64,000 bases of DNA, from positions 1 through 64,000 of the forward strand of contig JAUHYW010000008.1 of NCBI GenBank assembly GCA_030426085.1, in the 5' to 3' direction. The position numbers were made by a program, and so were the translations under genes. The notes under the pieces were generated by a model. The model worked only from the letters and a program-made list of their open reading frames with translations, was not told where the DNA came from and ran no database searches. Position 1 is the first letter of the stretch. Each line of letters begins with the position of its first letter. Positions 5,068 to 22,781 of this stretch are shown here, piece after piece. The DNA is from a bacterium (GTDB lineage: Bacteria; Myxococcota_A; Bradymonadia; UBA7976; UBA1532).

Positions 5068-6747
5068 TCAGAGCTTCTGGTACGGGGTCTGCCCGGATCG
5101 CGGGCGGCGGGGGGCGCGGCGGCGCGGCGGCGCGGCGGCGGCGTCGGATGCCCCGCCCCCGTCGGCCCCGTCCGAAGCGGCCCCGTCCGAAGCGGCCCCG
5201 TCCGAAGCGGCCCCGTCGGTGGCGTCCGGCCCGGGCGCGGCGTCCACCGGCGCGGCGGGGGGCGCCGCGCCGGGCTCCACCAGGGCGTCGGGCTCGGGGA
5301 CGGCGTCGGCTTCGATCGCGGCGTCGGCCTCGACCGGCGCCTGCCGGCCGCGGCTGAGCAGCCACATGCCGAGGATGCCCAGCACGGCGATGATCCCGCC
5401 GACCACCAGCGCGATCTGGAGCGGCGAGCGGGGCGCCTTGGGCGGCGGGGGGCGGATGAGCGTGGACGACGCGTTGAACGCCTCGACCCCGGGCAGCGCG
5501 GCCGGCTCGTCGTCGACCAGCGTGGGGCGGTCGTCCCGCCGGGGCTCGGCGCTGGGGCTGCGGGCGGGCACGTCGGCCGCCGAGTTGTACAGCTCGTGGG
5601 CCGATCCGAGGGCGATGAGCGCCGCGGTCCGGTCGATGGGCGGGCCGCCCGCCGGGGGAGGGCTGGGGCCCCGAGGCGGGTCGCTGCCCCCCGCGCCCGG
5701 GTCGCGCAGGCCGGGGATCGGGTCGGGCACGGTCTCGGCGTGGGTCGCGAGCTGCTCGCCGGATTGCAGCTCTTCGTCGGCCTCGAGCCCGGGCAGCGGG
5801 GCGGTGATCTTGGGGCGCCGCCCGGCCGCCGCCGACGGGCCGACGGGGTAGCTGTCCACCGCCGGCCGCTGGCCCGAGGGGCGGTCGGTGCCGGTGAGTT
5901 GGCGCATGATGAGGTCGAGCGCGTCGAGCATGGCCCGGGCGTCGGGGAACCGGTCGGCGGGCTGCTTCTCCATGGCCCGCCGCAGGAAGGCGGCGACGGT
6001 CTTGGGCAGCCCCAGCTCGGCGGGCAGCGGGGGCATCGTATCGAACCGGTGGGCGTTGATGAGCGCCATCAGCGAGCTGCCGACGAAGGGCTTTCTGCCC
6101 GTGAGCATCTCGTAGAGGATGACCGCCACCGAGTACTGGTCCGCCGCCGGGCCGCAGGGCTCGCCCATGGCCTGCTCGGGCGAGAAGTAGGACGGTGAGC
6201 CGACGACGGTCCCCATCTGGGTCTGGAACCGCGCCCGGCGGTCGTCGAGCAGCTTGGCGATGCCGAAGTCCAGGATCTTGATGCGCTCTTCGCCGGCGGC
6301 GTCCTGCACGATCATGATGTTGGCCGGCTTGAGGTCGCGGTGGATCAGGTCGAGCCCGTGGGCTTCGACGAGCACGGTGACGACCTGCCGGATGTAGTCC
6401 AGCGCCCGGATCGGGTCGAGCGGGGCTTCGTCTTTGACGACCTGCTTGAGCTCGCGGCCGTCGACGTACTCCATGACCATGTACAGCGTGCCGGCGCTGT
6501 CGCCGTAGTCGTGCAGGGTGACGACGCCGGGGTGGTTCAGCCGGGCGATGGCCCGCGCTTCGCGGAAGAACCGGGCCCGCAGCGACTCGTCGGTGGCGGC
6601 GTGGGGTGAGATGACCTTGAGCGCGACGGTGCGCTCGACGGGGTGCTGGATCGCGCGATAGACGCTGCCGTACGCCCCGCGCCCGAGCGGGCCGATGATC
6701 TCGTACTTGTCGGCGATGCGCACACCGCTGTCGAATTCGGTGCTCAC
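5068..6747 (-). CDS. Membrane-anchored Ser/Thr protein kinase
   Basis: The product has 559 residues. The kinase domain runs from about residue 14 to 275, with a glycine loop LGRGAYGSV (21-29), the ATP-anchoring lysine in VALKV (44), catalytic HRDLKPAN (136-143), DFG (160-162) and an APE-equivalent SPEQA. It is of the Hanks/PknB type common in Myxococcota. A Pro-rich linker leads to one transmembrane helix at about 443-465 (LQIALVVGGIIAVLGILG), followed by an acidic tail with GAASD repeats that should lie outside the cytoplasm. No PASTA domain is present. The gene stands alone between the repeat array and the aminopeptidase gene, so its partner or substrate cannot be told. Confidence 0.9.
   Translation of the reverse strand: MSTEFDSGVRIADKYEIIGPLGRGAYGSVYRAIQHPVERTVALKVISPHAATDESLRARFFREARAIARLNHPGVVTLHDYGDSAGTLYMVMEYVDGRELKQVVKDEAPLDPIRALDYIRQVVTVLVEAHGLDLIHRDLKPANIMIVQDAAGEERIKILDFGIAKLLDDRRARFQTQMGTVVGSPSYFSPEQAMGEPCGPAADQYSVAVILYEMLTGRKPFVGSSLMALINAHRFDTMPPLPAELGLPKTVAAFLRRAMEKQPADRFPDARAMLDALDLIMRQLTGTDRPSGQRPAVDSYPVGPSAAAGRRPKITAPLPGLEADEELQSGEQLATHAETVPDPIPGLRDPGAGGSDPPRGPSPPPAGGPPIDRTAALIALGSAHELYNSAADVPARSPSAEPRRDDRPTLVDDEPAALPGVEAFNASSTLIRPPPPKAPRSPLQIALVVGGIIAVLGILGMWLLSRGRQAPVEADAAIEADAVPEPDALVEPGAAPPAAPVDAAPGPDATDGAASDGAASDGAASDGADGGGASDAAAAPPRRRAPRRPRSGQTPYQKL
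5171..5215. repeat. Three tandem 15-bp units inside the kinase tail
   Basis: TCCGAAGCGGCCCCG is repeated three times without change. On the coding strand it encodes the GAASD repeats near the kinase C-terminus. The unit is a multiple of three, so gain or loss would change tail length without a frameshift. Confidence 0.85.
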
Positions 6748-11285: not shown

Positions 11286-12053
11286 TCAGAAACGCCAGAC
11301 GGCCCACACCGCCGAGGGCGAGATCCACAGCGCGGTGGGGGTCGGGTCGTCCCACACGATGGCCGCGATGCCCAGGCCCGCCGCCCCGGCCAGCCCGGCC
11401 AGCCCGATCATCGAGCGGACCATGGCCTCCGACTCGGCGTCCCGCACCAGCCCCGCCCAGCGGTCGGCCTCGGCCTCGGTCTCGGCGTCCCGGTAGCGGG
11501 CATGGGCCGCGTCGGCGTCTCCGTCGGCCTCGGCGGCGAGGAAGAGCGCCACCCCGCCGACGATCGCCGCGGCGGCGGCGCCCCCGGCCAGCCACCACCG
11601 GGTCGGATCGGTCGGCGGCGGGGCCACGACCTTCTCCACCACCGTCGGCGCGGTCGGCGGCGGGGGCGTGTTGCGGGCGGCGCAGCGCTCGACCAGGATC
11701 GCCCGCCCGGCCCGGGCCCGGGTCAGCGCCGACTCGCTGCGCCGCTCGTCGGCGTGGGTCAGGAAGGTCTCGAACCAGGCGGCCCCCTCGCACACCGGGG
11801 GGTCGGGCAGGCCCCGCTCGACCATCAGCTCGACGCAGCGGCCGAGGTTGTAGTGGATGGGCGCGAAGTGCACGTGCTCGGGGCCGATGCGGCGGCGCAC
11901 GGCGTCGAACCGCTCGAGCGCGGTCTTCAGGTCGCCGCTGCGGTAGGCCTCGGTGCCGGCGTAGTACAGGTCGTCGATCGTCTCGGCCCCGGCCGGCGGG
12001 ATCACGAGCCCGAGCGCCAGCAGCGGCCCGATGAGCGCCCGCCCGACCCTCAC
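11286..12053 (-). CDS. TPR-like exported membrane protein coupled to kinase gene
   Basis: The product is 255 residues if translation begins at the GTG at 12053, which overlaps the stop of the upstream kinase gene as GTGA. A signal sequence (IGPLLALGLVIPPAGA) is followed by a tetratricopeptide-like segment (YYAGTEAYRSGDLKTALERFDAV) and then two hydrophobic helices near the C-terminus (WWLAGGAAAAAIVGGVALFLA and MIGLAGLAGAAGLGIAAIVW). The four-base overlap implies translation coupled to the kinase. A role as a partner of the kinase is inference; no known family is recognised beyond the TPR-like part. Confidence 0.75.
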   Translation of the reverse strand: MRVGRALIGPLLALGLVIPPAGAETIDDLYYAGTEAYRSGDLKTALERFDAVRRRIGPEHVHFAPIHYNLGRCVELMVERGLPDPPVCEGAAWFETFLTHADERRSESALTRARAGRAILVERCAARNTPPPPTAPTVVEKVVAPPPTDPTRWWLAGGAAAAAIVGGVALFLAAEADGDADAAHARYRDAETEAEADRWAGLVRDAESEAMVRSMIGLAGLAGAAGLGIAAIVWDDPTPTALWISPSAVWAVWRF

Positions 12054-14185
12054 TTGACCTCGCCGTCGACGCATTGCTGGTCGACGAGGGGCAGCTTGCA
12101 CCGGGCGACCCGGCGGCCGAGGCGGCGGGCGCGGTCCTGGGGGAAGGCCCGGGGCAGCCCGTCGTGCAGCCGGCGGGCCTGGCTGCAGCGGCAGGTCGAC
12201 AGGGCCTCGAGGATGGGGTCTTCGTAGCGCTGGATCTGGCGCCAGCCCATAGCGGCCCGGTGGCGCACGGGGCGGGCGCCGTCGGTCGCCGGGGCCCCGT
12301 CGGCCGGATCGGCGTCGACGGCGGCCGGGGCCGCGTCGGGCAGGGCCACGTCGGGGGTGGGCACGAGCGGCGGCGGCTGGTCGCCCACCGACAGGCGGAT
12401 GGTCTCGACCGGGCCGGCGTCGCCCCCGTCCTCGCCGGTGACCCACGGCACCAGCGCCAGGGCCAGCATCGCCACCCCGGCCAGCGCGGCGGCCACGAGC
12501 CACCACGGGCGGCGGCCCTCGTCGGGCGGATCGACCAGCCCCAGCTCGCCCCGGGCGGCCTGGATGGTGCCGCTGGTCTCGCGCAGCGCGGTCGGGGCGT
12601 GGCTGACGTCGATGTCGCCCCAGGCGGGCGAGGCCTCGGTGGTCATCGGGCCGCCGGGGTCGAGGGTCGGCAGCGCGGCGAGGTCGGGGTCGATGACCAC
12701 GCTCTGCTCGGCGCCCATGATCGGGGGCGGCTCGAGCAGGGTCTCGCCCTCCTCATCCGGGGGCAGCTCCGGGGACGGGTCGCGGGCGGCGGCCGGCTCG
12801 ACCGGGGCTTCGGGGGCCGGGCGGACCTCGGACTCGACGGTCATCGAGCCCTCGCCGGGATCGTCCACCGAGGAGGCCGGCCCCAGCGCGGCGTCGAGCG
12901 CGGCGTCCAGGGAGTCGTCGGGCGCGGCGTCGGGCGCGGCGTCGGGCGCGTCGGCCGGCGGGGCGTCGACCGCGCCGTCGGGCAGGGTCGAGGCGGGGGC
13001 CGGCTCGTCGGTGCTCGCCGGCAGCGCGTCGGAGGCCTCGGTGGCCTCGGCCCCGTCGAGGTCGCCCGCGCCGGCCACGATCGCCCGGGCGGAGGCCGAG
13101 GGCCCCGAGAGGCCGTCCATGGAGCCGCTCGGCGCAGCGTCGCCCGGCGCAGCGTCGCCCGGCGGGCCCTCGATCGGGGTCGGCTCGGCGGTCTCGACCG
13201 CCGCCGAGCCGGGCAGCGCGGCGAGCAGGGCCTCCCGCATCTCGGCGGCGTCGGCGAAGCGGTCGGCGGGGTTCTTGAGCAGCACCCGCTCGATCCAGGC
13301 CCGCAGCGTGGGCGGGGCGAGCGCCTCGTCGAGCCGGGGCGCCGGCTGGTACAGGTGGGCCGCGGCGATCTCGGCCTGGGAGCCGTCGAACGGGGCCTGC
13401 CCGGCGAGCATCTCGTAGAACATGATGCCCACCGCGTAGCAGTCGGTGGCCGAGCCCACCTGCCCCCCCTGGCGGAGCTGCTCGGGCGCCATGTAGCGCA
13501 CCGTGCCCAGCACCAGCCCGGTCCCGGTCTTGGGGCCCTCGTCGTCGTCCTCGGCCTCGAGCACCTTGGCGATGCCGAAGTCGATGACCTTCACCGTGTC
13601 GTCCCGGTGCTCGACGACGAGGATGTTGGCCGGCTTGAGGTCGCGGTGCACCAGCCCCAGGGCGTGGGCGTGGGTCAGGGCTTCGAGGATCTGGGCGGTG
13701 ATGTGCACCGCCTGGCGGGGCGAGAGGCGCTTCTTGGACCGCAGGATGCGCTTGAGCGAGCGGCCGGGCACCAGCTCGAGGGCCATGAACAGCGCGTCGT
13801 CGGCCTCACCGTAGTGGTAGACCTGCACGATGTGCGGGTCGCGCAGCCGCTCGAGCAGCCGGGCCTCCTGGGTGAAGCGGGCCCGGGCGTCGGCGTTGTG
13901 CCGCTCGGCCCCGGGGCGGATGGTCTTGATGGCCACCTGCCGCCGGTCGTGGGCTCGATCGATCGCCCGGTAGACCGCGCCGAAGCCGCCGAGCCCGAGG
14001 ATGTCGAAGATGAGGTAGTTGTCGGCCAGCGAGCGCCCGAGCAGGGCGTCGCTGCCGAAGCGCTCGGCGGTGGCGGCCGGCACGAGGACCCGCTCGTCGT
14101 GCGGGCAGAGGTCGCCCGGTGCCCGATCGGAATACGCCCGACCGCAGCCCAAGCAACGCCACTCTCCCGGCTCGACCGTCGCCAT
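12050..14185 (-). CDS. Ser/Thr protein kinase with N-terminal zinc-ribbon-like motif
   Basis: The product is 711 residues. It opens with CLGC (11-14) and CPH (27-29), a probable zinc ribbon. The kinase domain starts near residue 57 with glycine loop LGLGGFGAV (63-71), lysine in VAIKT (about 87), HRDLKPAN (180-187), DFG (202-204) and MAPEQL. A long Ala/Pro/Asp-rich linker of about 230 residues follows, then one transmembrane helix (561-584) and a short extracytoplasmic tail ending in a cysteine-containing segment (CRCSQ). This is the membrane-anchored Hanks kinase type. The next gene downstream overlaps by GTGA and is likely co-expressed. Substrates are unknown. Confidence 0.9.
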   Translation of the reverse strand: MATVEPGEWRCLGCGRAYSDRAPGDLCPHDERVLVPAATAERFGSDALLGRSLADNYLIFDILGLGGFGAVYRAIDRAHDRRQVAIKTIRPGAERHNADARARFTQEARLLERLRDPHIVQVYHYGEADDALFMALELVPGRSLKRILRSKKRLSPRQAVHITAQILEALTHAHALGLVHRDLKPANILVVEHRDDTVKVIDFGIAKVLEAEDDDEGPKTGTGLVLGTVRYMAPEQLRQGGQVGSATDCYAVGIMFYEMLAGQAPFDGSQAEIAAAHLYQPAPRLDEALAPPTLRAWIERVLLKNPADRFADAAEMREALLAALPGSAAVETAEPTPIEGPPGDAAPGDAAPSGSMDGLSGPSASARAIVAGAGDLDGAEATEASDALPASTDEPAPASTLPDGAVDAPPADAPDAAPDAAPDDSLDAALDAALGPASSVDDPGEGSMTVESEVRPAPEAPVEPAAARDPSPELPPDEEGETLLEPPPIMGAEQSVVIDPDLAALPTLDPGGPMTTEASPAWGDIDVSHAPTALRETSGTIQAARGELGLVDPPDEGRRPWWLVAAALAGVAMLALALVPWVTGEDGGDAGPVETIRLSVGDQPPPLVPTPDVALPDAAPAAVDADPADGAPATDGARPVRHRAAMGWRQIQRYEDPILEALSTCRCSQARRLHDGLPRAFPQDRARRLGRRVARCKLPLVDQQCVDGEVK

Positions 14186-15693: not shown

Positions 15694-16695
15694 ATGCGCC
15701 GTCCGACCGAGCTGCCGAGCACCATGGGCACCGCCCTGCGCCACCTCGTGCGCTTCGCCGAGGGTCGGGGGGTCGACGTGCAGCGCCTCATCGACGACTC
15801 GCCGCTCGACCGGGCGATGCTCGACGACCCGCTCGTGCGGCTGCCGGCGGCGGCGGCCGACGCGCTGTTCGACCGCATCCTGCGGGCCGGCGGCGACCCG
15901 CTGCTGCACCTGCGCATGGCGCCCGAGGTGCCCATCGGCGCGTTCCAGGTCATCGACTTCGTCGCCAGCAGCGCCGATACGCTCGGCGAGGGCTACCGCT
16001 CGCTGGCCCGCTACTTCTGCATCGTGCACCAGGCGGTCGGCTTCTCGGTCGAGGAGGCCGAGGGCGAGCACCGCTTCGTCTACCGCCCCGGCGCGCTCGG
16101 CGGCGACGGCGCGTTCTCGATGGCGATGTCGGCCACCCGCTTCGTGGCCCTCGCCGGCCCCGCGGCCACCCCCCGGCGCGCCGAGCTGATCCGGGCGCCG
16201 ATCGACGACCCCGCGCTGGCCCGGCGCCTCTTCGGCGATCACGTCGTCTACGGCGCCCCCCGGGACATGCTGGTCTTCGACGATGCGCAGTGGGCCCTGC
16301 CCCAGCCGGGGCGCAACCCGATGCTGCAAGCGGTGTTGCAGCAGCACGCCCGCAGCCTGCACGCCGACCTCGCGGTGCCCGAGACCCTCGCCGATCGGGT
16401 CGCCGCCGAGCTGCGGCGCCTGCTCGGCCAGGGCCGGGCCGAGCTGCGCCACGCCGCCCGCCGCCTCGCGATGAGCCCCCGCACGCTCCAGCGCCGCCTG
16501 CGGGCCGACGGCACCTCGTTCCAGGCGCTGCTCGACGCCACCCGGCGCGACCTCGCCGCGCATTACCTCGCCGACGAGGCGCTGACCGTGCTCGACGTGG
16601 CGTTCATGCTGGGCTACGCCGACGAGAGCGCGTTCCACCGGGCCTTCCGCCGATGGCACGCCCGCAGCCCGGGGGAGTGGCGCCGCGATCGGTGA
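15694..16695 (+). CDS. AraC-family transcriptional regulator (OruR/ArgR-like)
   Basis: The product is 333 residues from the ATG at 15694, which has GGAGAG nine bases upstream; an in-frame ATG at 15664 lacks such a site. Residues about 20-195 match the ligand-binding domain found in the OruR/PF12625 group of AraC regulators, with the typical DPLLHLRMA and GAFQVIDFVASSADTLGE stretches. The C-terminus carries the two helix-turn-helix units (LAMSPRTLQRRLRADGTSF, then VLDVAFMLGYADESAFHRAF). It should be a cytoplasmic DNA-binding protein. It lies divergent to the NrfJ-like gene and just upstream of the Septu-like operon; control of either is inference. Confidence 0.88.
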   Translation: MRRPTELPSTMGTALRHLVRFAEGRGVDVQRLIDDSPLDRAMLDDPLVRLPAAAADALFDRILRAGGDPLLHLRMAPEVPIGAFQVIDFVASSADTLGEGYRSLARYFCIVHQAVGFSVEEAEGEHRFVYRPGALGGDGAFSMAMSATRFVALAGPAATPRRAELIRAPIDDPALARRLFGDHVVYGAPRDMLVFDDAQWALPQPGRNPMLQAVLQQHARSLHADLAVPETLADRVAAELRRLLGQGRAELRHAARRLAMSPRTLQRRLRADGTSFQALLDATRRDLAAHYLADEALTVLDVAFMLGYADESAFHRAFRRWHARSPGEWRRDR

Positions 16696-16819
16696 GTGGC
16701 GTACTCACCCGGCGTCGACGCCCATCCCAGCCGCCCGCACGGTCGAGGGTGGAGCGGCCGGCACAGCGGGTGTAAGCTCAGCCCCGCCCAGGGCTGGCTG
16801 CGGCCGAGATGGAGGCACG

Positions 16820-18181
16820 GTGTTCCGGATCGAGGAGCTCTACATCGAGAACTTCAGGGGTGTGCGTGAGGCGCGCGTACAGCTCCACCCCCAGGCCACC
16901 GTCTTCTTCGGGCCGAACGCGGGCGGGAAGTCGAGTCTGCTCGACGCCGTGGCGATCGCGCTCGGTCCGATCGTCGAGCGGGTACCGGGAGCCAAGAGCC
17001 GCCGGTTCGCGTCGTCGGGCGACATCCGCACACCCTGGCTCGACCGCGAAGACATCGACGAGTCGGCGGGGGTCGAGGCGAAGGGCGCGTGGCTGACCGT
17101 CCGCACGGTGGGCGGTGTCGAATGGGATACGGCGAAGTTCCGGAGCAGACAGGCTCGTGAAGGATCGAATCCCCGACGCCGGGAGGCCCTGCACCGCTGG
17201 CTCGATCCGCTGCTCACGGCGGTGCAGGAGGCCCGGAGGAAGCTGTCCGGGCCGGCGTTGCCGTTCGTCGCCGCCTTCGGCAACGAGCGCGCGGGGGTCG
17301 AGATCCCCAAGCGCAAGCGACAGTTCAGCGACGACACGTCGCGGTTCAAGGCGCTCGACGAGTCACTCAGCGCGACGACCCGGTTCAAGGCCGTCTTCGA
17401 GTGGTTCAACGTCAAGGAGATCGAAGAGCTTCGGGAGATGAGGCGCCGCGACGACCTGGGGTACCGGCTGCCGGCGCTCGAGTGGGTCCGGCGCGCGGTG
17501 GAGCGGTCGGGGCTGCGTTGCAGCAACCCTCGTATCGAGAACGCACCCATACGGATGATGGTCGACTACCGACACGAGGACGACTCCATCCAGACACTCG
17601 ATATCCGGCAACTCTCCGATGGCTACCGGACCCACTTCGCCCTGATCGTCGACCTCGCCCGGCGTATGGTCCAACTCAACCCCTGCGCGACCCTCGACGA
17701 TCCCGAGCGAGGGACCAACAGCGCCGGCGTCGTGATCATCGACGAGATCGATCTGCACCTCGATCCGGTCTGGCAGTCGCGAGTGGTGCAGGGGCTGGTG
17801 ACGGCGTTCCCCAACGTACAGTTCGTCTTGTCGACCCACTCGGAGCAGGTGATCGGCTCGGTGCGGGCGGAGCAGGTCCGGCGGCTGCGGTGGCACAGAG
17901 GTGAGATCGTTGTCGAGCGGGTGCCATTCGCCCAAGGGGCGACCGGTGAGCGGATCCTGGTCGAGTTGATGCACGCCTGGGAGCGGGTCCCGGGGCCGAT
18001 CAAAGAGAAGCTGGAACGCTATCTGGCGCAGGTGCAGGCGGGCGATGGGCAAGCCCCAGACGCGGTGGCGCTGCGGCGCGAACTGGAGGCCGCCCTCCCG
18101 AATGATCCGATGCTGGGGCGCGCGGACGGCCTGATGAAGCGGCAGGCCCTGTGGCGCCGCTTCCCCTCGCTCGAACAGTGA
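16820..18181 (+). CDS. ptuA: AAA ATPase, Septu PtuA-like
   Basis: The product is 453 residues from a GTG start with GGAGG at 16811-16815. It is a RecF/OLD-like ATPase: an N-terminal IENFRGV, Walker A GPNAGGKSS (31-39), ABC-like signature QLSDGYR (264-270), Walker B VVIIDEIDLHLDP (304-316) and an H-loop STHSEQVI (338-345). The middle is charged and helical. It overlaps the next gene, an HNH nuclease, by GTGA; this pairing is the hallmark of the Septu anti-phage system, also part of some retrons. Codon use here is slightly less GC-biased than the neighbours (more A/T at third positions), which hints at transfer. No transposase or integrase is present nearby. Confidence 0.75.
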   Translation: MFRIEELYIENFRGVREARVQLHPQATVFFGPNAGGKSSLLDAVAIALGPIVERVPGAKSRRFASSGDIRTPWLDREDIDESAGVEAKGAWLTVRTVGGVEWDTAKFRSRQAREGSNPRRREALHRWLDPLLTAVQEARRKLSGPALPFVAAFGNERAGVEIPKRKRQFSDDTSRFKALDESLSATTRFKAVFEWFNVKEIEELREMRRRDDLGYRLPALEWVRRAVERSGLRCSNPRIENAPIRMMVDYRHEDDSIQTLDIRQLSDGYRTHFALIVDLARRMVQLNPCATLDDPERGTNSAGVVIIDEIDLHLDPVWQSRVVQGLVTAFPNVQFVLSTHSEQVIGSVRAEQVRRLRWHRGEIVVERVPFAQGATGERILVELMHAWERVPGPIKEKLERYLAQVQAGDGQAPDAVALRRELEAALPNDPMLGRADGLMKRQALWRRFPSLEQ

Positions 18182-19035
18182 AGCGCGTCCCATCCCTCGC
18201 CGCCGAGCCGGCCGGTCTGGCCGCGTATCGAGCGGCTCACCCCGATGATGTGGCAGCGCCTCGCGCTCAGGCGGCACGGGTCTGGGAGCGCTTCAAGGAC
18301 GACCGCGCGGCCTACCACGGGCTGCGCGCCGCGTTGCTCGACAGGCAGCAGGGCCTCTGCGCGTATTGCGAGCAGCGCCTGCTTCACCCGCCGCAACATG
18401 CCCGGGCCGGCGATCTGGTCTTCGGCGACTATCAGATCGAGCATGTCGAGCCCAAGAGCACGGGACAGGGGGCCGTGCTCGACTGGCAGAATCTCGTCAT
18501 GTGCTGCGGCGGTGGAACATACACCCACACCGCGGACGCGACGCGCTACGATCGGCGCCTCGGTGGCGCGGGCGACAACGAGTCGTGCGGTCAGGCCAAG
18601 GGCGATCTGTCCCTGGCGCCCGGGTGCGACCCGCGGGCGTTCGACTGGCGGATGCCACCGGTCACGGTGAACCTCCTCGACGGGCGGGTCGTACCCGATG
18701 ACCCGGCGTGTCGGGCGGCCGGGATCGATCCGGATGCCTTGAAGAATACGATCGATGAGATCCTGCAGCTCAACTGCGAGCGGTTGCGGTACGCGCGCAC
18801 CGCGCTTCTAAAGACCCTCGAAGACACTCGAGACATCACCCAGGAGGTATTCGGGCTGTGGTCCGGACTCGACGCCGAGGAGCAGGCGCGCCTCCTCGGC
18901 GTCCTCTGCGGCAGCGAACTCCGACCGGATTCGCACGGCTGCCTGCCGGCTTTCTGGACGGCGCGAAGAGTCTACTTCGGTCCTCTCGCAGAGCGATGGA
19001 TCGCTGAGCACAGCGATGTCTTGAACTTCGCTTGA
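18178..19035 (+). CDS. ptuB: HNH endonuclease, Septu PtuB-like (TIGR02646-type)
   Basis: The product is 285 residues starting at the GTG at 18178, inside the upstream stop (GTGA). The nuclease motif is visible: CAYCEQRL (61-68), YQIEHVEPKS (85-94, catalytic His89), DWQNLVMCC (102-110) and a later CGQAKGD, which together resemble the zinc-bound HNH fold of the TIGR02646 family that includes PtuB. The family partner is the ATPase encoded immediately upstream. By family knowledge PtuA assembles with PtuB and the complex degrades nucleic acid when phage infection triggers it. At 285 residues it is somewhat longer than a minimal TIGR02646 protein, with an extra C-terminal helical part. Confidence 0.75.
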   Translation: MKRVPSLAAEPAGLAAYRAAHPDDVAAPRAQAARVWERFKDDRAAYHGLRAALLDRQQGLCAYCEQRLLHPPQHARAGDLVFGDYQIEHVEPKSTGQGAVLDWQNLVMCCGGGTYTHTADATRYDRRLGGAGDNESCGQAKGDLSLAPGCDPRAFDWRMPPVTVNLLDGRVVPDDPACRAAGIDPDALKNTIDEILQLNCERLRYARTALLKTLEDTRDITQEVFGLWSGLDAEEQARLLGVLCGSELRPDSHGCLPAFWTARRVYFGPLAERWIAEHSDVLNFA

Positions 19036-19102
19036 GCGCGCGGGTTGGTCGGCTTCGACGTGCCCGGTCCGGTGGCCCGCCGTACGCCGCGATCGGTGAG
19101 CC

Positions 19103-20593
19103 TCAGAACCACCCGTGGATCTGCACGAAGACGTCGGCCGCCTCCTCGCCCGGGCCGCCCTTCTCGGGGATGCCCACCCGCCCGTCGGCCGAGATCGTCA
19201 GCCCCGGCACGACATGCCAGTCGAGCCCCAGCCCCGGGCGGTAGACCACGTCGTCCCGCACCTCGCCGTCGGGGTCGAAGCTGTCGAAGCGCAGGCGGGC
19301 GACCACCCCGTTGACCGGGTGCCACGCGAGCTGGTGGTACCACGCCAGCCGGGAGGTCTCGCTGCCCGAGAACGGCCGCTGGTAGCGGCCCCAGACCACC
19401 TCGCCGAGATAGGTCAGCGCCAGCGCCTTCCACCGCCGCCACGGGTTGTAGCCCCAGTGCAGGGCCAGATCGAGGGTGTCGCCCCCGCCCGAGAGCGGCC
19501 GCCGGCGCATCATCGCCGAGCCGCCGAGCTGCCACGCGAGGTCGCGCCAGCCGCCGTCCAGCGCCGCGCCCCAGCCGTCGGCCATCGCGAACGGGTTCTG
19601 GCTGGCGCCGTCGGCCGGCTTGAAGGCCGAGGCGGTGAAGTGGGGGTAGTTGCCGGTGAAGCCCGCCTCGAGCCCCACCACCCGGTTGGCCGGATCCTCC
19701 ATGCTCATGCCGAACGGGCGCCGGGTGTAGGCGGTGTGGTCGGCCACCCGGGTGCCGAAGGCCGGCATGAAGCGCCCCGCCCGCAGGTGCATCAGCGCCG
19801 GCCACTCGTGGGTCATGGCGTACAGCTCGCGCACCCCGAAGCGGAGCTGCTCGGCGTCGGGCGCGCCGCGGGCGTCGAAGGTGAGGCTCTTGGTGCGACC
19901 CCGGGCGCCCACCGTGCCGGCGATGGTCAGGTGCTCCACCGGGTGCAGCGCCGCGTGCAGGTCGAGCTGCATCGGGAAGAACAGCGGGCCGGCGCTCCAG
20001 TATCCGAAGCGCACGTCGGCCCCGAGCTGCACGAGCGGGTCGGCGTTCAGGTCGCCATAGCGCCCGTCGAGCCACGCCATCTCGCTCGAGCCGTGCCCCA
20101 GCGGCCGGCCGAACGACAGCCAGCCGTCGTCCGCCGGCGGGGCGCCGGGGCCCCGGGGGTCTTCGTTGTGGGCCTCCATCGGCTTCACCGGCCCCGACGC
20201 GGGGAGCTCGGCGCCGACGGGCTGGGAGCTCGGCGCGATCCGGTCGGCGGGGTCGCCGGTGAACAGGTCCCACACGTCGCGGGGCTGGTCGTCGAGCGGC
20301 CGGGCGATGCTGCCGAACATGGGCAGGGTCGCCATGCCGAAGTAGCGCCCCGAGACCGTGCGCAGCCCGCCGCCGCTGGGGTCGACGTGGCACCCGGCGC
20401 AGCTCAGGGTGCACTTGCGCTCGGTGACCTCGGGCGGGTCGTACCAGGTGTTGGGCAGGCTGTGGCAGTTGTCGCAGGTGCGCCCCGAGCGGGCGCCGTA
20501 CATCGGCAGGGCGAGGGCGTCTGCGGCGACCAGCAGGGTCAGGGTGCCCAGGAGCCACGCCAAGTGCGTCTTGGGGTGGGTGGCGTCAATCAC
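19103..20593 (-). CDS. Diheme c-type cytochrome fused to outer-membrane beta-barrel
   Basis: The product is 496 residues from a GTG at 20593, which overlaps the end of the upstream cytochrome gene by eight bases. A signal peptide (LAWLLGTLTLLVAADALA) is followed by two haem-binding motifs, CDNCH (40-44) and CAGCH (65-69). After residue about 150 the sequence becomes a long series of alternating polar and aromatic strands ending in the terminal HGWF, typical of an outer-membrane barrel with C-terminal phenylalanine. The layout suggests a porin with a small haem domain at the periplasmic side, carrying electrons across or to the outer membrane. I do not recognise a named family. Confidence 0.75.
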   Translation of the reverse strand: MIDATHPKTHLAWLLGTLTLLVAADALALPMYGARSGRTCDNCHSLPNTWYDPPEVTERKCTLSCAGCHVDPSGGGLRTVSGRYFGMATLPMFGSIARPLDDQPRDVWDLFTGDPADRIAPSSQPVGAELPASGPVKPMEAHNEDPRGPGAPPADDGWLSFGRPLGHGSSEMAWLDGRYGDLNADPLVQLGADVRFGYWSAGPLFFPMQLDLHAALHPVEHLTIAGTVGARGRTKSLTFDARGAPDAEQLRFGVRELYAMTHEWPALMHLRAGRFMPAFGTRVADHTAYTRRPFGMSMEDPANRVVGLEAGFTGNYPHFTASAFKPADGASQNPFAMADGWGAALDGGWRDLAWQLGGSAMMRRRPLSGGGDTLDLALHWGYNPWRRWKALALTYLGEVVWGRYQRPFSGSETSRLAWYHQLAWHPVNGVVARLRFDSFDPDGEVRDDVVYRPGLGLDWHVVPGLTISADGRVGIPEKGGPGEEAADVFVQIHGWF

Positions 20594-20945
20594 AGCTCGA
20601 CCCCTGCTCGCGCCAGCGGATCAGCGTGAGCTCCTCCCACGGCTGCAAGCGCATGGCGCCGCCGGGTGGCATCTCGGCGGTGTCGAAGACGGTCTCGACG
20701 AGGCCGCCCCAGCCGCGCTTCGTGGCGTCGCAGGTGTCATAGGCGTAGCCCTCCTGAGCCCCGGCCTGTCCGCCCGGGTCGTGGCACGCCACGCAGTGCA
20801 CCTGCATGATCGCGCGGACGTGGGCGGTCCAGGTCGGCGCCGCGGGGGCCGCCTGGGGGTCGATCTCTTCGAGGGTCAGGTCGCCGGTGCCGCAGCCGAC
20901 GAGCGCGGCGAGGGCGAGGCAGGCGACGAGCGGTGACGGGCGCAT
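20586..20945 (-). CDS. Monoheme c-type cytochrome lipoprotein
   Basis: The product is 119 residues from the ATG at 20945, preceded by AAGGAGG. A short signal ends with lipobox ALVGC (Cys18). One haem motif CVACH occurs at 51-55 within AHVRAIMQVHCVACHDPGG, the usual start of small cytochrome-like (DUF1592/planctomycete-type or PQQ-linked) domains; the axial methionine may be in EMPPGGAM. The gene is coupled to the diheme barrel gene by overlap, so the lipoprotein probably passes electrons to or from it at the outer membrane. This is inference from context. Confidence 0.82.
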   Translation of the reverse strand: MRPSPLVACLALAALVGCGTGDLTLEEIDPQAAPAAPTWTAHVRAIMQVHCVACHDPGGQAGAQEGYAYDTCDATKRGWGGLVETVFDTAEMPPGGAMRLQPWEELTLIRWREQGSSCD

Positions 20946-21008
20946 GGGCGACCTCCTTGGGGTTGGGGCCTTGCAGCCACTCAACCCGCGAGGGCCCGTG
21001 AACGGGCA

Positions 21009-22777
<1,769 letters not shown>

Positions 22778-22781
<4 letters not shown>

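What the first reader, a model, noticed from the sequence alone, without database searches (positions are those of the whole stretch)
16820..19035. Candidate Septu (PtuA-PtuB) anti-phage operon
A RecF/OLD-like ATPase (Walker A, LSDGYR signature, Walker B, H-loop) overlaps by GTGA with an HNH nuclease of the TIGR02646/PtuB kind (CAYCEQ, IEHVEPKS). This pairing is established for Septu. Here the nuclease is longer than the minimal form, and third positions are less GC-biased than in neighbours. No mobility genes flank it, which leaves its route of entry open.
Basis: partly seen in the sequence, partly recalled or inferred. Interest (0 to 1): 0.62.

Follow-up and report, generated by a model that had tools for sequence, protein, structure and literature searches.

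The report
Ordinary standalone Septu anti-phage operon
A myxobacterium-group chromosome carries an intact two-gene Septu defence operon, an ATPase that holds and controls an HNH nuclease against phages; the system is already known, and the only unusual point is that short direct repeats frame it, as if the two genes had been inserted alone, without a mobility gene.

Summary
ORF 16820-18181 (453 aa) is a full-length PtuA and ORF 18178-19035 (285 aa) a full-length PtuB, joined by a 4-base GTGA overlap. Profile searches (PADLOC PtuA 1.6e-91, PtuB 2.4e-44; TIGR02646 above its cut-off) and predicted structures (PtuB: E. coli Septu 8eea, Z 21.0; PtuA: solved PtuAs, Z 26-38, next family 19) agree. 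Core motifs are present. No reverse transcriptase or known structured RNA lies nearby, and PtuA lacks the roughly 60-residue N-terminal extension of retron PtuA: it is standalone Septu, not a retron I-A effector. It is accessory: absent from the sister genome, whose colinear neighbourhood lacks 4.3 kb here; this PtuB family occurs in 15 of 377 genomes of the phylum. GC3 is 0.80-0.87 against 0.91-0.98 next door. What I add: the operon lies between two copies of a perfect 16-bp direct repeat with no other exact copy in the 10.1-Mb genome, and the nearest homologous operon in the family (G006) lies between copies of a different 21-bp repeat. This hints at insertion of the bare two-gene unit with target duplication; for the window alone it is suggestive, not proven. 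Target and trigger are untested.

The parts
16820..18181 (+). ptuA, 453 aa, GTG start: SMC/RecF-like ABC ATPase of Septu (PtuA)
   Evidence: PADLOC PtuA 1.6e-91 over residues 3-443; PDB 8ee4 8e-35; predicted fold matches all solved PtuAs, Z 26-38
18178..19035 (+). ptuB, 285 aa, GTG start: HNH nuclease of Septu (PtuB), long form
   Evidence: PADLOC PtuB 2.4e-44 over residues 1-277; TIGR02646 55.2 bits against cut-off 52.15; predicted fold Z 21.0 to 8eea PtuB
18178..18181 (+). GTGA overlap of ptuA stop and ptuB start
   Evidence: sequence; same 4-base overlap in the three nearest relatives
16681..16696 (+). left copy of 16-bp direct repeat CGCCGCGATCGGTGAG, covers the stop codon of the AraC gene
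   Evidence: only two exact copies in the 10.1-Mb genome
19085..19100 (+). right copy of the same 16-bp direct repeat, ends 2 bases before the stop codon of the convergent 496-aa gene
16697..16819 (+). 123-bp upstream region expected to hold the promoter; no sigma-70 consensus match found

Best explanation
An intact, standalone type I Septu operon. Shown: both genes, their families, their motifs, their predicted folds and their accessory distribution. Inferred from studied Septu: PtuA binds ATP and assembles into an oligomer that recruits PtuB (6:2 in E. coli); on phage infection PtuB's HNH site is released or activated and cuts nucleic acid, stopping phage production. The substrate is more likely DNA than tRNA-Tyr (about 65:35), because by sequence and by fold the nearest solved PtuBs are those of the DNA-degrading E. 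coli Septu and the ssDNA-degrading retron Ec83, not the tRNA-cleaving retron-Eco7. The operon probably entered the genome fairly recently as a bare two-gene unit, since GC3 is low, the pair is missing in the sister genome and direct repeats frame it. The confidence given is for the Septu identity; the substrate and the entry route are less certain.
For: Full-length profile hits to PtuA and PtuB; TIGR02646 over cut-off; 8ee4 PtuA 8e-35; Ec83 PtuB 3.6e-6 and 8ee7 PtuB 0.0018, no Ec78 PtuB up to E = 1. AlphaFold models with pLDDT 82.9 and 80.1; PtuB fold best to 8eea (Z 21.0, rmsd 2.8, 229 residues), then Ec83 (17.8), then Ec78 (16.6); PtuA fold to solved PtuAs only above Z 26, SMC heads next at 19. 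No RT on contig C20 and no Rfam match in the window. Conserved pair order in 15 loci. Sister genome lacks it. Mechanism literature: PMC12948488 (6:2 complex, phage genome degradation; Ec83 ssDNA), PMC11555353 (Septu of ATCC 25922 targets nicked DNA; Eco7 targets tRNA-Tyr), PMC13096335 (another Septu cuts tRNA-Tyr; Walker and H-N-H mutants lose immunity).
Against: No experiment in this organism. Substrate cannot be read from the fold; a studied standalone Septu (Ec B88) cuts tRNA-Tyr. Scores are below NCBI's strict cut-offs for the Ec78 PtuA and PtuB equivalogs, as expected for a non-retron member. Identity to any studied member is low, about 25%.
Confidence: 0.93

Rival explanations
1. It is the effector pair of a type I-A retron whose RT and msr-msd lie elsewhere or were lost.
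For: TIGR02646 is named for retron HNH endonucleases and the retron I-A profiles also match (PtuA 209 bits, PtuB 81.7 bits).
Against: Standalone PtuA and PtuB profiles score far higher (305.6 and 150.2 bits); PtuA aligns from its residue 1 to residue 60-63 of retron PtuA, so the N-terminal extension is missing; no RT on contig C20, no Rfam match.
Confidence: 0.03
2. A Septu whose nuclease cuts a tRNA (as Septu Ec B88 and retron-Eco7 do), stopping translation rather than destroying phage DNA. This is a rival to the substrate part of the best explanation, not to the Septu identity.
For: A standalone E. coli Septu cuts tRNA-Tyr (PMC13096335).
Against: Nearest solved PtuBs by sequence and fold are Septu ATCC 25922 and Ec83, reported to act on DNA; Ec78/Eco7 ranks lower. 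This is similarity only, not a test.
Confidence: 0.33
3. An ABC ATPase plus HNH pair with a housekeeping DNA repair role rather than defence.
For: PtuA is a RecF/SMC-like ATPase; the genome holds about a dozen related ATPases.
Against: Patchy presence, absence in the sister genome; full-length Septu profile matches in both genes.
Confidence: 0.03

Closest known systems
Septu of E. coli ATCC 25922 (PtuA-PtuB; PDB 8ee4, 8ee7, 8eea taken to be this system)
   Same: Two genes, full-length matches in sequence and fold, same motifs, no retron.
   Different: About 25% identity; PtuB is 285 aa against 243; different phylum.
Retron Ec83 and Ec78 (retron-Eco7) effectors PtuA-PtuB, type I-A retrons
   Same: Same ATPase and HNH families, same fold.
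   Different: Those have an RT, msDNA and an N-terminal extension on PtuA; none here.
Septu Ec B88 (PMC13096335)
   Same: Standalone ptuA-ptuB.
   Different: It cuts tRNA-Tyr; the substrate here is unknown. Its sequence was not compared.

Membership tests
Septu (type I, PtuA-PtuB) | PtuA ATPase matching the Septu profile over its full length | tested here: met
   1.6e-91, residues 3-443 of 453; fold
Septu (type I, PtuA-PtuB) | PtuB HNH nuclease matching the Septu profile | tested here: met
   2.4e-44, residues 1-277 of 285; fold Z 21.0 to 8eea
Septu (type I, PtuA-PtuB) | The two genes adjacent, same strand, ptuA first | tested here: met
   4-base overlap; same order in 15 loci
Septu (type I, PtuA-PtuB) | Walker A/B, signature and HNH/zinc cysteine residues intact | tested here: met
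   Invariant columns incl. K37, D308, E309, H340 in PtuA; C61, C64, E88, H89, C110, C137 in PtuB
Septu (type I, PtuA-PtuB) | PtuA-PtuB complex and anti-phage activity | not testable with these tools
   needs bench work
Type I-A retron | Reverse transcriptase and msr-msd next to ptuAB | tested here: not met
   No RVT_1 match on contig C20; no Rfam match in the window
Type I-A retron | About 60-residue N-terminal extension on PtuA | tested here: not met
   Model residue 1 aligns to residue 60-63 of Ec78 and Ec83 PtuA but residue 2 to residue 1 of standalone PtuA

The most novel reading that the evidence does not exclude
Septu can move as a bare two-gene cassette, without its own recombinase, into short intergenic gaps, leaving a 16-26 bp duplication of the target. 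Two unrelated repeats frame two diverged Septu operons of one family (window: CGCCGCGATCGGTGAG; G006: GGGTGCGCGACGCGCGGAGGC), and removing one repeat copy plus the operon leaves a compact, sensible junction in both. The insertion machinery is unknown; Ku was found in G006 but not in the window's genome.
Probability: 0.2. Interest if true: 0.45.

Novelty: new member of a known kind. Interest (0 to 1): 0.22.

Why it matters
It adds a diverged, long-PtuB branch of Septu from Myxococcota, with nearest matches in a few other myxobacterial and proteobacterial genomes. If the flanking repeats prove to be target duplications, they would give a direct way to ask how small defence operons spread without mobility genes, an open point in the field of defence-gene turnover.

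Tried and rejected
Retron effector: rejected on profile ranking, missing RT and missing N-terminal extension. Defence island: PADLOC hits at 5071-6747 and 12053-14185 (PD-T4-6) are ordinary Ser/Thr kinases, so not taken as defence. Transposon with terminal inverted repeats: no inverted repeat of 7 bases or more in the 48 bases inside each end of the unit in the window. tRNA-gene integration: no tRNA in the window. Capture by end joining: no Ku in the window's genome or its sister, two in G006, so it is unlikely to be the common cause. The repeat as a dispersed element: only two exact copies in the genome. Repeats as a general Septu trait: 17 other PtuAB loci show none clearly above chance. Scans of genome contigs and viral contigs with PtuB alone found nothing; phages none, plasmids only weak Acinetobacter hits. 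Looking in the window-G001 alignment for another large insertion as a control gave none. The Foldseek job for PtuA was not collected; VIA-align on the same model was.

Full report
Check of the observation. ptuA runs from a GTG at 16820 to the stop ending at 18181 (453 aa); ptuB from a GTG at 18178 to 19035 (285 aa), with a GTGA overlap. The mechanical ORF list starts the second frame at 18151, but homologues start at the position of the 18178 GTG and the three nearest share the 4-base overlap. All cited motifs are present. GC3 is 0.87 and 0.80, against 0.91-0.98 for the neighbours. PtuB is indeed long: 285 aa, against 213-238 for short forms and 259-264 for its nearest relatives.

Identity. 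PADLOC gives PtuA at 1.6e-91 and PtuB at 2.4e-44, both over nearly the whole protein. NCBIfam places the nuclease in TIGR02646 above its cut-off. By sequence the PDB gives E. coli PtuA 8ee4 at 8e-35, and Ec83 PtuB at 3.6e-6 with E. coli PtuB at 0.0018. Predicted structures, made from alignments of 16 and 15 sequences, match E. coli Septu PtuB at Z 21.0 (rmsd 2.8 over 229 residues) and solved PtuAs at Z 26-38, with SMC heads next at 19.

Standalone or retron. The standalone profiles beat the retron I-A profiles by about 97 bits for PtuA and 69 bits for PtuB. The model's first residue aligns to residue 60-63 of Ec78 and Ec83 retron PtuA but to the first residues of standalone PtuA. The genome has RT genes, none on contig C20, and Rfam finds nothing in the window. 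It is a standalone Septu.

Distribution. PtuB has no match in the other genome of the genus; in the same family only G006 has a clear homologous pair, at about 35% identity. With the best PADLOC PtuB model, 15 of 377 genomes of the phylum match. The sister genome G001 is colinear on both sides; 4,327 bases of the window (16685-21011) correspond to 77 bases there. That gap also holds the 496-aa gene (19103-20593) and the small cytochrome c-like gene (20586-20984), whose homologues lie together in three other family members, so G001 may have lost that pair separately. The window's genome carries a second PtuAB pair at C70:70070-71886.

Flanking repeats. A perfect 16-bp direct repeat frames the operon: 16681-16696, over the AraC stop codon, and 19085-19100, 2 bases before the stop codon of the convergent gene. 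It has no other exact copy in the genome. In the window, random stretches of the same length have such a repeat in 300-bp flanks about 2 times in 300, and one other 16-bp pair at this spacing exists in the window, so by itself, with 19 loci tested, this is suggestive only. In G006 the homologous operon is framed by a different 21-bp perfect repeat, 26 bp with one mismatch, also with no other exact copy in that genome. Removing one repeat and the operon gives AraC and the 496-aa gene converging with 3 bases between their stop codons in the window, and in G006 two tandem genes about 45 bases apart with a GGAGG ahead of the second gene's ATG (reading of the sequence). Seventeen other PtuAB loci show no comparable repeat. 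My reading is insertion of a bare unit with target duplication in these two cases; no empty site was found, and no mechanism is shown.

How it works. From the literature held here: Septu forms a 6:2 PtuA-PtuB complex that degrades phage DNA (PMC12948488, PMC12198126); the E. coli ATCC 25922 system targets nicked DNA while retron-Eco7 PtuAB depletes tRNA-Tyr (PMC11555353); another Septu cuts tRNA-Tyr and needs both active sites (PMC13096335). Substrate therefore varies in the family. Ours is nearer to the DNA-acting members, so I favour DNA, without a test.

Verdict. The finding is real and correctly named; it is a new member of a known kind. The repeats are the only part worth a further look.

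Noticed in passing
16681-16696 and 19085-19100; L031 8862-8882 and 11076-11096 (G006): Different perfect direct repeats (16 and 21 bp) frame two Septu operons of the same family.
   Followed up: partly
19103-20984: A 496-aa protein with no Pfam match and a small cytochrome c-like protein are missing at this locus in the sister genome but occur together in three other family members.
   Followed up: partly
21009-22781: Protein with 12 thrombospondin type 3 repeats; similar repeat proteins also lie near the 496-aa gene in G003 and G010.
   Followed up: no
G000:C70:70070-71886 (L032 8071-9887): A second, diverged PtuAB pair in the same genome; an RT-like gene lies about 24 kb away.
   Followed up: no
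5071-6747 and 12053-14185: Two Ser/Thr protein kinases that PADLOC labels PD-T4-6; probably ordinary signalling kinases, a likely false positive for defence annotation.
   Followed up: no
61465 and 63570: Another exact 16-bp direct repeat pair (ACGGCACCCTGGCGGT) about 2.1 kb apart; not examined.
   Followed up: no
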